A stretch of DNA of 64,000 nucleotides, from positions 339,646-403,645 of the forward strand of contig NZ_JZHZ01000007.1 in the NCBI RefSeq assembly GCF_000963005.1, read 5' to 3'. The translations under genes and the position numbers were made by a program. Below are positions 2,645 through 50,746 of the stretch, one piece after another; position 1 is the first letter of the stretch; the number at the start of each line of letters is the position of its first letter. This stretch comes from Xanthomonas sp. GPE 39. Its GTDB lineage: Bacteria > Pseudomonadota > Gammaproteobacteria > Xanthomonadales > Xanthomonadaceae. The notes beneath the pieces are model-generated. The model had not been told where the DNA came from. It ran no database searches and saw only the letters and a program-made list of their open reading frames with translations.

Positions 2645-3577
2645 ATGCCAAGCGATCCCAGCATTCATCTCATCGATACCGGTTTTCAGCGCGCGCAGTT
2701 CGATGCGGCTTATTTGATGGTGGAGCAGGGGCGTGGGGCTTTCGTCGATTGCGGCACCAGTCATGCCGTGCCGGTGTTGCTGCACGCGCTGGAGTGCGCG
2801 GGTCTGGCGCCGGACAAGGTTGACTGGCTGATTCTCACCCATGTGCATCTGGATCATGCCGGTGGCGCCGGCGCGTTGCTGCAGCAACTGCCCAATGCGC
2901 GCCTGTTGGTACATCCGCGCGGCGCCTCGCACATGATCAATCCGGAGCGGCTGATCGCGGGCGCCACGGCGGTGTATGGCGAAGAGGAGATGGCACGCAG
3001 TTATGGCCGCATCGTGCCGGTGCCAGCCGAGCGCGTGGTCGTCGCCGAAGAGGGCCATCGGTTGAGGTTGGGTGCGCGCGAATTGCTGTGTATCGATACT
3101 CCTGGCCATGCGCGCCATCATCTGTGTGTGTGGGATGCGCGCAGCCGCAGTTGGTTCACCGGCGATACCTTCGGGCTGTCCTACCGAGAGCTGGACAGTG
3201 CGCGCGGCGCGTTCGCGATTCCGACGTCCTCGCCGGTACAGTTCGAGCCGGACGCCATGCGCGCCTCGATCCAGCGCATGCTCGACTACGCGCCGCAGAC
3301 CCTGTATCTGACGCACTACGGCCCGGTGGAAGGTGCGGCGAGGTTGGCGGCGGAGTTGTTCGAGCAACTCGATGCGATGGTCGCGATTGCGCGCGTCTGC
3401 GATGGCCGTTCCGATCGTCATCGTTGTCTGGTTGCCGCGTTGACCGCGTTGTACCTGGAGCGCGCACGCTTGCACGGTTGCGCGCTGGACGATGCCGGGG
3501 TGGAGCGCGTGCTGCACATGGACATCGAACTCAATGCGCAGGGCTTGGCTTGTTGGTTGGATCGTTCCGCAGGTTGA
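2645..3577 (+). CDS. Metallo-beta-lactamase-fold hydrolase
   Basis: The 310-residue product carries the zinc-binding signature THVHLDHAGG at about residues 65-74 (HxHxDH), a further metal His in DTPGHARHH and the acidic bridging residue in WFTGDTFG, so both metal sites look complete. There is no signal peptide, suggesting a cytoplasmic enzyme. It resembles the MBL-fold hydrolases of the glyoxalase II/quorum-quenching type, but nothing in the sequence fixes the substrate. The gene stands between trpS and a small secreted-protein gene, both on the same strand but with gaps over 70 bases, so no operon is implied. Confidence 0.88.
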   Translation: MPSDPSIHLIDTGFQRAQFDAAYLMVEQGRGAFVDCGTSHAVPVLLHALECAGLAPDKVDWLILTHVHLDHAGGAGALLQQLPNARLLVHPRGASHMINPERLIAGATAVYGEEEMARSYGRIVPVPAERVVVAEEGHRLRLGARELLCIDTPGHARHHLCVWDARSRSWFTGDTFGLSYRELDSARGAFAIPTSSPVQFEPDAMRASIQRMLDYAPQTLYLTHYGPVEGAARLAAELFEQLDAMVAIARVCDGRSDRHRCLVAALTALYLERARLHGCALDDAGVERVLHMDIELNAQGLACWLDRSAG

Positions 3578-3991: not shown

Positions 3992-4486
3992 TCAGGCGGT
4001 GGTGGAAATCAGACTGCCCACGATGCCCTGGTTGAGCAGATCGCCGACGATGGGACCGGTCAGGTTGGGATTTTCTTTGAGCGCGGACGACAGTGCCGGC
4101 GTCAACGTGTTGTCGGCGGTGAAGACGCCGGATGCGTTATAGATGCCGGGTGTCGACGGGGGGGTGCCGATACCATCCAAAATGCCCTGAGAATAGGACT
4201 GATTCGCCTGATTTTGATCGATGTTGGGCGAGGTGCCGTCGGCCGAACCAGCACGGACGATGGTATTGAACAGACCGGCCGCCGTATAGGTGAGGCCCTG
4301 GTCGGCAGGCGAGGAAGTGCCGAGGCTAAGGATCAACGCCGCATCCGATGACAGCGAGACAGCCTGTTGCACTGCAGAAGTGTCATTGCTTGCTTGGACA
4401 GTGTTGCCGAGCGGGTTCGTTGTCGGGATGGCGAATGGGTTTGGTGCGCTACCGATCGACTGCAGTGAAGCATCAATGCTGGTCAT
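3992..4486 (-). CDS. Hypothetical protein, Ser/Thr/Asn/Pro-rich
   Basis: A 164-residue product with no Cys, Trp or His and almost no basic residues, rich in Ser, Thr, Asn and Ala. No signal peptide or membrane segment is visible. The amino end (MTSIDASLQSIGSAPNPF) is polar and disordered-looking, and the middle contains short Asn/Gln runs. This composition resembles secreted structural or type III/flagellar-type export substrates, but that is only a resemblance. The ATG at 4486 is the first in frame. It is isolated, with about 135 bases to the gene on its left and over 500 bases of non-coding sequence upstream. Function unknown. Confidence 0.6.
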   Translation of the reverse strand: MTSIDASLQSIGSAPNPFAIPTTNPLGNTVQASNDTSAVQQAVSLSSDAALILSLGTSSPADQGLTYTAAGLFNTIVRAGSADGTSPNIDQNQANQSYSQGILDGIGTPPSTPGIYNASGVFTADNTLTPALSSALKENPNLTGPIVGDLLNQGIVGSLISTTA

Positions 4487-5062: not shown

Positions 5063-5974
5063 ATGAGCGTTGCCGAGCACGACCTGCGGCGCGGTTTATG
5101 GATGACTGCGGCGGCTTTTGCGCTATGGGGCGTCGCGCCGTTGTACTGGCATCTGCTCAAGGCAGTGCCGTCTGCGCACATCATCGCTCACCGCATCGTG
5201 TGGAGCGCCGTGCTGGTGGTGGCCTGGTTGATGTACAGCACACGCCTGCAGTGGTGGCGGCGCATCGCCGCGCAGCCGCATGCGTTGGTCACGCTGGCGT
5301 TGAGCAGTGTGGCGATCGCCTTTAATTGGGGCTTGTACATCTGGGCGATCAATGCCGGGTATGTGATCGAGGCCAGCCTGGGATATTTCATCAATCCGCT
5401 GTTCAACGTGCTACTCGGCGTGGTGGTGCTGCATGAACGCTTGCGTCGGCTGCAATGGCTCGCGGTCGCGTGTGCAGCGCTCGGTGTGGTCTGGCTCACG
5501 ATCGATGCAGGCGCGCCGCCGTGGGTCGCGCTGGGTTTGGCCAGCTCGTTCGCACTGTACGGCCTGCTGCGCAAGTTGGTGCACGTGGATGCGGTGGCTG
5601 GATTGGGCGTGGAAAGCGTGTATCTGTTCCTGCCAGCGCTGGGCTTCCTGCTCTGGGGCGAGGCGGGTCACGGCGGCGGGTTTTTTGGCGCCTGGGGCTG
5701 GCGTGACGACGTGCTGCTGATGTGCGGTGGCGCGGTCACGGCGGCGCCGTTGATCGGTTTCGCTTACGGGGTGCGGCGGGTTCCGTTGTCGTTGGTTGGA
5801 TTGCTGCAGTACATCTCGCCAAGTTTGCAGTTGCTGCTGGGTGTTTGCTTCTTCGGTGAGCCGTTCGATACCGGCAGGGCGCTGGGTTTTGCCGCGATCT
5901 GGATCGGGCTGCTGCTGTTCGCTGGCGAGAGCGTGTGGCGTTCGGGGATCGGGCGCCGCCGCGGCGTGGTATAG
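5063..5974 (+). CDS. rarD: RarD-type EamA/DMT permease
   Basis: A 303-residue inner-membrane protein with about ten hydrophobic segments and the RarD signature region (AAAFALWGVAPLYWHLLKAVPS, then HRIVWS) at the amino end. It belongs to the drug/metabolite transporter superfamily; RarD homologues are named for chloramphenicol sensitivity, but their substrate is not established. The open frame runs further upstream, but the extra residues are Arg/Cys/Gly-rich and unlike a protein, and the family's usual length of about 300 supports the ATG at 5063 (MSVAEHDLRRGLW). It converges with the hydrolase lipoprotein, with 16 bases between stops. Confidence 0.93.
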   Translation: MSVAEHDLRRGLWMTAAAFALWGVAPLYWHLLKAVPSAHIIAHRIVWSAVLVVAWLMYSTRLQWWRRIAAQPHALVTLALSSVAIAFNWGLYIWAINAGYVIEASLGYFINPLFNVLLGVVVLHERLRRLQWLAVACAALGVVWLTIDAGAPPWVALGLASSFALYGLLRKLVHVDAVAGLGVESVYLFLPALGFLLWGEAGHGGGFFGAWGWRDDVLLMCGGAVTAAPLIGFAYGVRRVPLSLVGLLQYISPSLQLLLGVCFFGEPFDTGRALGFAAIWIGLLLFAGESVWRSGIGRRRGVV

Positions 5975-5990
5975 CGGGGCGATACGGCAC

Positions 5991-7133
5991 TCAGCCTCGG
6001 GTGGTGTTCGCGGTCGAGGTGAGGGTGAATTGTTGGGTAGCGTCCAGGCGTGGCGGCAGCGGCTGCGGGCAGTGACCGTCGTGGCGTGGCGCCGGTAGTT
6101 CGGCGAACCAGTCTTCTACGGTGGGTGCCAGCAAATCCAGCCGCATCGGCAGGCTCAGGTGATTTTCCCCGTGCATCTCCAGGTAGTGCGCGCGTGGCGC
6201 GTCCAGCGCCAGCAATCGGCCGTGCGCCACCGGGATATGTTGGTCGGCGCTGCCGTGCAGCAGCAGTACGCAAGCGCTTGTGCTGCGTGCTGCGGTGGTG
6301 ACATCGACTTGGTCCAGGTTCAGCGCCAGGCGTTGATTGGCGCTGGCGATCACCGCATCCAAGTTTTGATCGCCATAGCGCCACCGCGCCAGATCCATCG
6401 CCGCGCTCGCCATCCAGCCGCGCGGGTGGCTGGCGAGCATGTGCGGGATCATGTCGCGGATACCGCGTCCGGCATTGGCGAAGGATTCCAGCGCCACCAC
6501 GCCGTCGACCGCGTTGCCGAGCTTTTGCGCGGTGAACAATGCGGTGGCCGCGCCATAGGACACGCCGAACAGGTAGACCGGCCCCTGCACTTCGCCGCGC
6601 ATGCGTAGTGCGCGGATCACCGCGACCACGTCATCGGATTCGCGGGTGCCGTAGCCCGCCGGCCCGCCGCCGGAACGACCGTGGTTGCGCAGGTCGATGC
6701 TGATGCTGCGATAGCCGGCCTGAGCCAGGTCCAGCGACCACGGCAGTAGCGAATCGCCGTCCATCATCCAGCCGTGCAACAGCACCACGGTGCCGCGCGG
6801 TACCGGATGAATCCCGGGCGGCGGTGTGGCGACGTCCATCGCGAAGTCGGCGTGTTCGTGGCCGTTGGCGTCGCGAGCGGCGTGTTCGTAGCGGTAGCGC
6901 ATACGGTAATCGCCTGGGTCGATCGCGCGCCAGAAGATCGGGATACCGCCCGGCACCACCACGTGTCCACTGCGGTTGGGCAGGGTCGCCAGCAGGCTTT
7001 GGATCCGCTCCTCGTCCATCAACGGTGATACGCCACCGGGTGCGACCAGGCGGTCGCTCAACGAGGTGGAGGAACAGGCGCCCAGGCACACGCTGGCGCA
7101 CAGGACAAGCAACAGGCACAGGCGCGAGGACAT
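5991..7133 (-). CDS. Alpha/beta-hydrolase lipoprotein
   Basis: The 380-residue product begins with a lipoprotein signal peptide ending in the lipobox CLGAC, so it should be anchored by Cys19. The hydrolase fold is clear: oxyanion region VVLLHGWMMDGD, strand-turn SIDLRNHGRSGG, nucleophile elbow GVSYGAA with catalytic Ser, an acid in LLHGSADQHIP and a His in MHGENHLS. It resembles serine aminopeptidase/lysophospholipase-like enzymes of the cell envelope. The substrate is unknown. The gene is convergent with rarD, and its promoter must lie in the 290-base gap to its right. Confidence 0.88.
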   Translation of the reverse strand: MSSRLCLLLVLCASVCLGACSSTSLSDRLVAPGGVSPLMDEERIQSLLATLPNRSGHVVVPGGIPIFWRAIDPGDYRMRYRYEHAARDANGHEHADFAMDVATPPPGIHPVPRGTVVLLHGWMMDGDSLLPWSLDLAQAGYRSISIDLRNHGRSGGGPAGYGTRESDDVVAVIRALRMRGEVQGPVYLFGVSYGAATALFTAQKLGNAVDGVVALESFANAGRGIRDMIPHMLASHPRGWMASAAMDLARWRYGDQNLDAVIASANQRLALNLDQVDVTTAARSTSACVLLLHGSADQHIPVAHGRLLALDAPRAHYLEMHGENHLSLPMRLDLLAPTVEDWFAELPAPRHDGHCPQPLPPRLDATQQFTLTSTANTTRG

Positions 7134-47923: not shown

Positions 47924-50230
47924 TCAAGGTTGCGGTGAGCATCTGTTCGTGCGCGGCGAGCTTGTCGCGGGCGGTGAAGCAGATGGATCGTGCTGACAAC
48001 ACATCTCAGCGTGTGTTTGGCACGGCAAGCGCGGACGTTGTGTTGATGTCCCCATATCAGCAGCCGCCCGCGCCGCTTCGCGGAGTTTGGGCAATAAGCG
48101 CAGGGTCAGTGCGAGTTGGTTGCGCACCAGCCGGCGCTTGCTGTCGTCGATGCCATCCTCGCGTTCCAGTGCGTCCGCCAGCGCGATCTCCACCGCCGTG
48201 TCGGTCATGGGTAACGCGTGTCGCTGGTTCAGTGCGTCGGCTAGCGCGCTCAGTGTCTCTTGCAGGTAGGTGCCTGCATGGTCGATGTCCGGATCGGCTT
48301 CGCCGGCCAGAGCGGCGCGGTGCGCGCCCAGCGCTGACAGATAACCGAGCAGGGTGTTAGACAGCGCCAGAAAGCGGAAACCCGCATCCAGATTGCGGCG
48401 ATAGCGGCCCGGTTCGCGCAGCATGTTGGATAACGCCACCGACAGGCCCGCGTCGGCGTTGTGCATGTCGCGCCGGGCGATGCGGTAAGGCAGATCGTCA
48501 CGCATGCCGCTGCGATATTGCTCCAGCACTTGCGTCAGGTAGCGTGCGCAACTGGTCAGCACCGTCGCCATGACCTGGTTGATACGGCGACCCTGCCAGT
48601 CCGGCAGGATCAAGAACGCGGCGGCGGCGGCAATTGCGCAGCCGATCAGCGTATCGAGCAGACGCGGCCAGATCAGCACGAAGCCGTCGCCGAGCAGGTT
48701 GAAACAGAACAGCGCCATCACTGTGATTCCCGCAGTGGCGAGCATGTAGCGGTCAGTACGGGTCACGAAGAACAGCAGCGTGGCGAGCAAGGCAAACAGT
48801 AACTGCACCTCGGTGCCGGTGAACAGTTGCATCAGCGCCCAAGCCGCGCCCAGGCCGATCAGCGTGCCGGCGATGCGTTGCGCCAGGCGCAGCCGGGTGG
48901 CGCCGTAGTTGGGCCGGCAGACAAACGCGGTGGTCAGCAGCACCCAGTAGCCGTTGCGTGTATGCATGGCTTGGATGATGGTGTAACCGGCTGCCAGCGC
49001 AATCGCCATGCGCAGTCCGTGCCGGAACAGCACCGAGCCGGGGGTGAATTGTTGGCCGAGGCGCAGCAACATTTCGCGCAAGGTATGCGGCGAAGCGTCG
49101 CGCAGGCGAGTATCCATGGTGTCGCTGTTGGTATCTGATCGTGCCGCCTCGGCCAGGCGCCGTTCGATGCTCTGCAGGTTGGTCACCAGTAACTCCAGCG
49201 AGCCGAGCAGGCGCGCCTGCTGCGGATCGGCGTGGGTGTGCAGAAAATCCAGCGACTGACGCAGGTCGGTGGTGGCCTGCTGGGTCTGCTCGCCATAGTC
49301 GAATGGCTGGCGTAGCCGGATCGCCTCGCCCAGTGCCGCGCAGGCCTTGCCCTGTAGCGCCAGCAGACGCTGGCAGCGGTACAGCACGTCGCTGTGGAAG
49401 AAGGCGTCGGTCAACGCCTCGTATGGATAGTGCGAGGAGCTGGCGCGCTCGTGGAAGTCCTGCGCCATGTAGTACAGGCGGAAGTACAGGCCGGACTGCA
49501 CGCCGGGCCGGCCGGAACGACCGAAGCGGCTCATGATTGCGGTCTTGGCCGCATTGAGCGCTGCCACCACTTGTGCGTTCTGTTCGGCCAGTGCCAGCCG
49601 CCGCGCCTGCAGGTCGCTTTGCCGGATCGGCTCGAACAGCGCGGCTTTGAGTTGCAGGTAGCGGCCAAGTTCGACGAACAGCCGCGACAGCCCTTCGCGT
49701 ACCGGGCGGTTGGCGAACAGCACCGTCCACAGCACCGACAGCACGCCGTACCAACCAGCGCCGAGTAGCAACAGTGCCACGCCGTGCCAAGCGCTGCTGT
49801 CCAGATGGCCGCTCTGGCTGACATGGTCGATGCCGATCATGGTGTAGATCGCCAGCGCCACCGTGCCCTGGGCGATGGACGCATAGCGTTCGCCGAGCGC
49901 GCCGAGCAGGGTCAGGGCGAAGGTGGACAGCGCCAGGCCGGCCACGAACGCGAGCGGATACGGGAACAGCACCACCACCGCGGCGGCAGCGGCGGCGAAG
50001 CACAGAAGCGACAGCAGCACCGATTTGATCCGGCCCAGCCAATTGTCGTCGGTTTCGGCGATGGCGCTGGCGATGGTGCCGAGGAAGATCGCCGGTAGCG
50101 CATCCAACTGCTGGCGATGCCAGCACAGGCCCATGGCCGCGGCCAGTGCGATGAACACACGCAGGCCGTAGCTGGCCTTTTCGTGGGCCCAGAGGCGGCT
50201 GAGACGGGATTCGAGCGAGGTCGTGGACAC
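47924..50230 (-). CDS. YccS/FUSC-family membrane protein
   Basis: A 768-residue integral membrane protein of the FUSC type, with two clusters of about six helices (amino end about 20-180, and about 400-550) separated by a cytoplasmic helical region. The amino half matches the YccS/YhfK domain (VFIALAAAMGLCWHRQQLDALPAIFLGTIASAIAETDD, in part). Related proteins are aromatic-acid or fusaric-acid exporters, but the YccS branch has no proven substrate. The start is probably GTG at 50230 (VSTTSLESRLSRLW); the longer frame adds an unrelated basic tail. Orphan CRISPR repeats lie just upstream. Confidence 0.9.
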   Translation of the reverse strand: MSTTSLESRLSRLWAHEKASYGLRVFIALAAAMGLCWHRQQLDALPAIFLGTIASAIAETDDNWLGRIKSVLLSLLCFAAAAAAVVVLFPYPLAFVAGLALSTFALTLLGALGERYASIAQGTVALAIYTMIGIDHVSQSGHLDSSAWHGVALLLLGAGWYGVLSVLWTVLFANRPVREGLSRLFVELGRYLQLKAALFEPIRQSDLQARRLALAEQNAQVVAALNAAKTAIMSRFGRSGRPGVQSGLYFRLYYMAQDFHERASSSHYPYEALTDAFFHSDVLYRCQRLLALQGKACAALGEAIRLRQPFDYGEQTQQATTDLRQSLDFLHTHADPQQARLLGSLELLVTNLQSIERRLAEAARSDTNSDTMDTRLRDASPHTLREMLLRLGQQFTPGSVLFRHGLRMAIALAAGYTIIQAMHTRNGYWVLLTTAFVCRPNYGATRLRLAQRIAGTLIGLGAAWALMQLFTGTEVQLLFALLATLLFFVTRTDRYMLATAGITVMALFCFNLLGDGFVLIWPRLLDTLIGCAIAAAAAFLILPDWQGRRINQVMATVLTSCARYLTQVLEQYRSGMRDDLPYRIARRDMHNADAGLSVALSNMLREPGRYRRNLDAGFRFLALSNTLLGYLSALGAHRAALAGEADPDIDHAGTYLQETLSALADALNQRHALPMTDTAVEIALADALEREDGIDDSKRRLVRNQLALTLRLLPKLREAARAAADMGTSTQRPRLPCQTHAEMCCQHDPSASPPATSSPRTNRCSPQP

Positions 50231-50328
50231 GGCGACACGATAGCGTACCCGTTGTCGGTGCGACGCGATCAGCGTCACCGGGTGTGTCAGAGAATGGGAG
50301 GCATTGGTGTGGCGATCCAGCGGCGGAT

Positions 50329-50592
50329 TTTTTGAGCTGCTTGTGCGGCAGTGAACGCCCTGCCCAACATCACGACGCTGGCTCGGATCTTTTTGGGCTG
50401 CCTACACGGCAGTGAACGTGTGGCGCTGACCTTGATTGCGTCTTCCGCATTTCTGAGCTGCCTACACGGCAGTTAACTACGCCGGTTACTTCGTCTTGAT
50501 CGCCATTCTTTTCTGAGCTGCCTACACGGCAGTGAACAAACGCAACTCAGATCAAAGATGCACGCATACTTTCTGAGCTGCCTACACGGCAG
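50329..50592 (-). CRISPR. Short type I-F-like CRISPR array, no cas genes nearby
   Basis: Five copies of a 28-base repeat (50329-50356, 50390-50417, 50450-50477, 50510-50537, 50570-50592) flank four unique spacers of 33, 32, 32 and 32 bases. The repeat carries the I-F palindrome, CTGCC...GGCAG, between a GTTCA end and an AGAAA end on the minus strand, matching the Pseudomonas/E. coli I-F repeat family. Copies 3 and 4 are near-identical (one change), copy 2 has two changes and copy 1 five, so the leader-distal end is on the left and the array is read on the minus strand. The leader-side copy 5 lacks its first five bases. No cas gene exists in this window. Confidence 0.92.
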
Positions 50593-50746
50593 GTTGCTGA
50601 CATCGGATGGATGCGTGGATGCGCAATTCACACCTGTTGCAGCTTTCCAGCACAGCCAGCCGCTGCCGCTTGCGCGCACAGCGACATCCTCTCGCAACGG
50701 GCGTTAGCGATGATGCCGTCGCGAGGGGATGCCGTGCTTACACGCG

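What the first reader, a model, noticed from the sequence alone, without database searches (positions are those of the whole stretch)
50329..50592. Orphan type I-F-like CRISPR mini-array between purD and a FUSC gene
Four unique spacers sit between five repeats of a 28-base unit with the I-F palindrome. The window holds no cas gene, leader or toxin near it. The repeat family normally pairs with the cas1-cas3-csy1-4 cassette, so this array either depends on cas genes elsewhere or is a fossil. The spacers record past invaders of this lineage. This is the clearest immunity signal in the window.
Basis: partly seen in the sequence, partly recalled or inferred. Interest (0 to 1): 0.7.

Follow-up and report, generated by a model that had tools for sequence, protein, structure and literature searches.

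The report
Leaderless distal type I-F CRISPR array
A short stretch of bacterial immune memory sits far from the CRISPR machinery that would read it; two of its four records match known phages almost perfectly, so it is a real but ordinary remote CRISPR array that can probably no longer grow.

Summary
Five 28-nt type I-F repeats and four unique 32-33-nt spacers lie at 50329-50597, minus strand, between purD and a yccS-type FUSC gene. "Orphan" is true only locally: the same genome has full-length cas1, cas2-3 and csy1-4 frames beside a 54-spacer array with the identical repeat, elsewhere on the chromosome, plus a prophage-borne array. Two of four spacers match IMG/VR proviruses (32/32 and 31/32), both with the 5'-CC PAM published for the X. 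albilineans I-F1 system; no target was found for the other two. One of those phage genes is also matched by a spacer of this genome's own I-C-like array. No leader is present, and the first five bases of the leader-side repeat no longer match, so the array probably cannot acquire spacers, although its crRNA-processing hairpins are mostly intact. A sister species has an array at the same site with conserved flanks but no shared spacer. Size and array content fit "X. pseudalbilineans" GPE 39 (inferred). Several I-F arrays sharing one cassette are already published for X. albilineans. New member of a known kind; the one puzzle is how a now-leaderless site holds wholly different spacers in two sister species.

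The parts
50329..50356 (-). Repeat 5 (leader-distal, 23/28; one stem pair lost)
50357..50389 (-). Spacer 4 (33 nt); no hit of its first 20 bases in viral contigs
50390..50417 (-). Repeat 4 (26/28; altered last bases, hairpin intact)
50418..50449 (-). Spacer 3; 32/32 match, preceded by ACC, in provirus IMGVR_UViG_2627853881_000008, inside a gene PHROGs labels superinfection exclusion Sie-like (Pfam: tRNA_anti-like)
50450..50477 (-). Repeat 3 (27/28)
50478..50509 (-). Spacer 2; one 20-base hit only (23/32 in all, no CC), taken as chance
50510..50537 (-). Repeat 2 (28/28, identical to the cas-linked array's repeat)
50538..50569 (-). Spacer 1; 31/32 match, preceded by GCC, in provirus IMGVR_UViG_2636415837_000002, inside a MASE1-domain gene
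50570..50597 (-). Repeat 1 (leader-proximal, 24/28; first five bases replaced, hairpin and 3' end intact)
50598..50746 (-). 149-bp stretch between purD and the array: no match to the I-F leader, no repeat remnant, no match over 31 bp elsewhere in the genome
50747..52036 (-). purD, upstream of and co-oriented with the array
47924..50278 (-). YccS-family FUSC transporter gene, downstream and co-oriented

Best explanation
This is a distal ('orphan') type I-F1 CRISPR array served in trans by the genome's one I-F1 cas cassette, which lies about 3 Mb away along the contig (about 0.5 Mb round the other way if the contig is the whole circular chromosome). It reads on the minus strand, from the purD side. 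If it is transcribed (perhaps by read-through from purD, inferred), Csy4/Cas6f would cut at the hairpins and load crRNAs into Cascade, which would target temperate phages at CC-flanked sites (inferred from the family). Because the leader is missing and the leader-side repeat has lost its first five bases, it most likely no longer takes up spacers: a frozen but still readable memory. Shown here: repeat identity, full-length cas genes elsewhere, orientation, absence of the leader, two phage targets with CC, and an array at the same place in a sister species. Inferred: transcription, processing, interference and loss of adaptation.
For: The same repeat core forms three arrays in the genome, one of them the 54-spacer array. 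Cas1f, Cas2-3f, Csy1, Csy2, Csy3 and Csy4 frames beside that array cover their NCBIfam models and exceed the cut-offs. Protospacers at 32/32 and 31/32, both preceded by CC, the PAM given for the X. albilineans I-F1 system in PMC10810201 (passage seen). In one search's screen of 130 spacers against 136 held sequences (window and loci; four of these loci had been fetched by spacer pieces), reversed spacers gave nothing below 8 mismatches. Six IMG/VR scans with 20-22 bases of a spacer gave two real hits and three chance hits of 22-23/32 without CC, and two scans gave none. The gene hit by spacer 3 is matched 34/36 by a spacer of this genome's I-C-like array, 47 bases away. Two sister-genome main-array spacers hit the provirus of spacer 1 at 2 and 3 mismatches, each with CC. 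Csy3 is present in 5 of 20 genus genomes, including both that carry this site.
Against: No promoter-like site in 701 bp (sigma-70 consensus only). No RNA data for this strain. Short I-F1 arrays 1 and 5 of X. albilineans CFBP7063 gave atypical crRNA products; whether either is this locus I could not tell. Two of four spacers here, and both spacers of the sister's array at this site, have no credible target. No match in the phage collection.
Confidence: 0.65

Rival explanations
1. Pure fossil: the array is not transcribed and is decaying.
For: No leader, damaged first repeat, decayed last repeat; no promoter-like site. A decayed I-F array (27, 26, 23, 23 of 28) exists in G008, which has no csy3 match.
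Against: Repeats 2 and 3 are 28/28 and 27/28; repeats 1-4 keep the hairpin; cognate cas genes are full length; two spacers match phages at 31-32/32; the array is co-oriented behind purD.
Confidence: 0.3
2. Leaderless but still changing: after the two species split, spacers at this site were renewed by recombination with other arrays or by leader-independent insertion. (Overlaps with the best explanation except on 'frozen'.)
For: Same site, conserved flanks (purD 1212/1290; downstream 955/1050 identical), no shared spacer (best in-register identity 11 positions of 32), the main leader not found at either copy. Near-perfect phage matches suggest uptake after the split.
Against: Separate loss of leader and of different spacers from a longer ancestral array explains the same pattern. 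The sister's purD-array join can be read as a deletion between a CGTGTA after purD and one inside a repeat (my reading). No spacer is shared between this array and this genome's main array.
Confidence: 0.2
3. Phage-borne mini-array left behind by a prophage.
For: Another cas-less array in this genome lies between an HNH endonuclease and terminase genes and is held in IMG/VR as a provirus.
Against: Neighbours here are purD and yccS. In the 39 of 80 named loci where both genes were in the fetched DNA they lie 0.1-3.6 kb apart without an I-F-like palindrome between them. End sequences differ from those of the phage arrays.
Confidence: 0.05
4. Anti-cas or regulatory array whose spacers match cas or host genes.
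For: Precedent in E. coli I-F orphan arrays (PMC8616872, passage seen).
Against: No spacer matches any other place in 20 genus genomes, five of them with csy3, at 3 or fewer mismatches.
Confidence: 0.03

Closest known systems
X. albilineans CFBP7063/GPE PC73 I-F1 arrays (PMC10810201; section 18 and passages seen)
   Same: One I-F1 system with five I-F1-associated arrays, some short; CC PAM; self-targeting spacers mainly against predicted prophages and a plasmid
   Different: Another species; the text seen gives no array positions, so I could not say whether one of them is the purD-yccS site
CRISPR-2 of 'X. pseudalbilineans' GPE 39 (PMC4584326; passages seen)
   Same: Probably this genome's cas-linked array; 28-bp repeats; a spacer-54 is mentioned and 54 spacers are found here
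   Different: The passages seen describe CRISPR-1 and CRISPR-2 only, not this array
CRISPR3/CRISPR4 of Brazilian X. albilineans (PMC10269729; passages seen)
   Same: Cas-less arrays with repeats identical to CRISPR-2
   Different: Next to an HNH endonuclease, CRISPR3 within prophages; like this genome's other cas-less array, not the window's
E. coli I-F orphan (CRISPR4) arrays (review PMC8616872; passage seen)
   Same: Short I-F array away from cas genes
   Different: Those lineages lost I-F cas and the spacers match cas genes; here cas genes are present and two spacers match phages
Virus-borne mini-CRISPR arrays (review PMC11656645; passages seen)
   Same: Short cas-less array using the host's repeat
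   Different: This one is chromosomal, between housekeeping genes

Membership tests
Type I-F1 CRISPR array | 28-nt repeat with the I-F palindrome | tested here: met
   Rfam RF01317 in 3 of 5 copies; one copy 28/28 identical to the cas-linked repeat
Type I-F1 CRISPR array | Unique ~32-nt spacers | tested here: met
   33, 32, 32, 32 nt; no second place in 20 genomes at 3 or fewer mismatches
Type I-F1 CRISPR array | Cognate cas1, cas2-3, csy1-4 in the genome | tested here: met
Type I-F1 CRISPR array | Protospacers in mobile DNA with 5'-CC | tested here: met
   Met for 2 of 4 spacers; none found for the other two
Type I-F1 CRISPR array | crRNAs with an 8-nt handle | not testable with these tools
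   No RNA reads on hand; repeats 1-4 fold into the hairpin
Adaptation-competent I-F array | Leader next to an intact first repeat | tested here: not met
   Main leader matches only the main arrays among the loci held; first repeat 24/28, its first five bases replaced
Virus-borne mini-array | Lies in a viral genome or provirus | tested here: not met
   Immediate neighbours are purD and yccS; prophage prediction of the wider window was not run
Anti-cas orphan array (E. coli CRISPR4) | Spacers match I-F cas genes; no I-F cas in the genome | tested here: not met
RNA anti-CRISPR (solitary repeat unit) | A single repeat without array | tested here: not met
   Five repeats
Guide for host gene regulation | Partial match to a host gene or promoter | tested here: inconclusive
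   None at 3 or fewer mismatches; seed-only matches not tested

The most novel reading that the evidence does not exclude
A chromosomal I-F array that has no recognisable leader in either of two sister species nevertheless had its spacers replaced after they split, by exchange with other arrays or by leader-independent insertion, so distal arrays would not be dead ends but recombining side-stores of immune memory.
Probability: 0.2. Interest if true: 0.5.

Novelty: new member of a known kind. Interest (0 to 1): 0.27.

Why it matters
It shows that an isolated-looking array belongs with cas genes elsewhere in the genome, and links it to two temperate phages. Across strains, the site could show how distal, leaderless arrays change or die, which is testable with genome sequences alone.

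Tried and rejected
A repeat remnant in the 149 bp next to purD: rejected, best minus-strand score 12/28 in the 198-bp piece searched, below the usual random best of 13-14. The 149 bp as a repeated element: no match over 31 bp elsewhere in the genome. Spacer matches in the phage collection: none. Plasmid collection: 21 records, 20 listed; most listed places overlap the array part of the query, one (Gemmobacter, 81% over about 47 bases, E 0.4) falls in the 149-bp stretch; I opened two X. citri records, which hold a one-spacer array with the same repeat, and did not examine the rest. Chance 20-base hits: spacer 2 in L133 (23/32), spacer 3 in L134 (22/32), a sister spacer in L143 (22/32), none with CC. 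A 25/33 match of spacer 4 on the same provirus as spacer 3, with TCC, is not counted: at 8 mismatches the reversed control gave 14 against 16 observed. One search's filter did not remove array copies; one search replaced it, and two of its three zero-mismatch rows (L012, L121) are still array copies, not targets. A lone repeat-like site with 3 mismatches at C1:2737139 was not followed. G001's species was not determined. PMC8073235, the one paper with all three terms, was checked: the 'purD' is an author name. Also mended: the distance to the cas cassette, which is only about 0.5 Mb round the other side if the contig is the whole circle.

Full report
What is there. Five copies of a 28-nt repeat with four unique spacers lie at 50329-50597. 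Read on the minus strand the consensus is GTTCACTGCCGTGTAGGCAGCTCAGAAA; from the purD side the copies score 24, 28, 27, 26 and 23 of 28, nothing else in the window reaches 19, and 2000 random 198-bp pieces from before position 49,200 never passed 18. Rfam's CRISPR-DR4 family calls three of the five, all on the minus strand. The array lies between purD and a YccS-family FUSC gene, all on the minus strand.

The genome. The window lies in an assembly of 3,534,477 bases in 8 contigs, the largest 3,517,237 bases. PMC4584326 (passages seen) reports assemblies of 4, 8 and 126 scaffolds; the 8-scaffold one has a largest scaffold of 3,511,121 bp and a total of 3,528,360 bp without gaps. It mentions a spacer-54 in CRISPR-2 of "X. 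pseudalbilineans" GPE 39 and says that, of its four strains, only GPE PC73 and GPE 39 have CRISPR-1. The genome here has a 54-spacer I-F array and a second array type with at least 19 repeats, which I take for type I-C from recall. The paper also says the spacers of GPE 39 showed no identity to phages in GenBank at that time, which agrees.

The machinery. The repeat core occurs in three arrays: the window's, one at C1:480.7-480.9 kb and one at C1:3377.9-3381.1 kb; one further lone site has 3 mismatches. The last array has 54 spacers and a leader. Directly before it are frames for Cas1f, Cas2-3f, Csy1, Csy2, Csy3 and Csy4 that cover their models and exceed the NCBIfam cut-offs. So the array is orphan by position only.

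The targets. Spacer 3 matches IMGVR_UViG_2627853881_000008 at 32/32, preceded by ACC; spacer 1 matches IMGVR_UViG_2636415837_000002 at 31/32, preceded by GCC. The published PAM of the X. albilineans I-F1 system is 5'-CC (PMC10810201, passage). Spacer 3's target lies in a gene that PHROGs labels superinfection exclusion Sie-like and Pfam tRNA_anti-like; a spacer of this genome's I-C-like array matches the same gene 34/36, 47 bases away. Spacer 1's target lies in a MASE1-domain gene on a contig with terminase, primase, CII-like and repressor genes (20 of 52 kb held). Two spacers of the sister genome's main array hit that contig at 2 and 3 mismatches, each with CC. No credible target was found for spacers 2 and 4. 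None of the four matches any other place in 20 genus genomes, its own included, at 3 or fewer mismatches.

Leader and processing. The cas-linked leader is 90% identical between the two species and matches nothing else among the loci held, which include the DNA around the window array. The leader-side repeat has lost its first five bases but keeps hairpin and 3' end; repeats 2-4 keep the hairpin; repeat 5 loses a pair. In an Acinetobacter I-F system a leader shortened to 60 bp gave no detectable acquisition (PMC9602844, passage). I infer that the array cannot adapt but could be processed if transcribed. No promoter-like site was found; read-through from purD is possible, not shown.

The site in relatives. 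Of 20 genus genomes, I saw the array at this site in G000 and G001 only (both lists were cut, and in 11 of the other 18 the interval itself was read and held no I-F-like palindrome). Of 80 named loci fetched around the FUSC gene (101 found, 80 kept), 39 held both purD and FUSC, and none of these had an I-F-like palindrome between them. In G001 the flanks are conserved (purD 1212/1290; downstream 955/1050), the trailing end of the array is alike, but there are only two spacers, neither shared (best 11 positions of 32, in register), and the first repeat starts at the purD stop codon. G001's join fits a deletion between a CGTGTA after purD (as in G000) and the CGTGTA inside a repeat (my reading). 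Separate losses from a longer ancestral array, or renewal of spacers after the split, both fit; near-perfect phage matches lean toward uptake after the split but do not prove it. Neither of G001's two spacers had a credible target.

What is known. X. albilineans CFBP7063 has five I-F1-associated arrays for one I-F1 system, and short arrays 1 and 5 gave atypical processing products (PMC10810201, section 18 read). Brazilian strains have cas-less arrays with CRISPR-2-identical repeats beside an HNH gene, CRISPR3 within prophages (PMC10269729, passages). My literature searches, with passages of the papers opened, did not turn up a description of the purD-yccS array; supplements and figures were not readable, and most listed papers were not opened. 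The finding is an ordinary distal I-F array with one open evolutionary question.

Noticed in passing
L011 (G000:C1:474000-488000), array at about C1:480665-480930: A second cas-less I-F array (4 spacers) in a prophage between an HNH endonuclease and terminase genes; the same spacers are in IMG/VR provirus 2636415431_000001. Same layout with other spacers in G001 (two places) and provirus 2627853881_000004.
   Followed up: partly
L121 spacer 2 and L093 spacer 1: Spacers of two such HNH-side arrays are near reverse complements (27 of 32 or 33), as if aimed at one phage site from opposite strands.
   Followed up: no
L141, G000:C1:3208766-3208801: A spacer of an I-C-like array of the same genome matches, 34/36, the phage gene hit by window spacer 3.
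   Followed up: yes
L130 and L131 (X. citri plasmids NZ_CP020886.1, NZ_CP020890.1), about 2994-3081: A one-spacer I-F mini-array, one repeat identical to this genome's and one 22/28, between csrA and a recombinase gene.
   Followed up: no
L097 (G008:C1:366000-378000), about 5794-6000, minus strand: A decayed four-repeat I-F array (27, 26, 23, 23 of 28) in a genome without a csy3 match.
   Followed up: no
L098 (G009:C1:280000-296000), starting at 4297 and 10931, minus strand: Two solitary I-F repeats (27 and 28 of 28) 6.6 kb apart in a genome without a csy3 match; possible solitary repeat units.
   Followed up: no
L132 and L135: Both target proviruses carry a MASE1-domain protein gene beside a repressor-like or regulator gene.
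   Followed up: no
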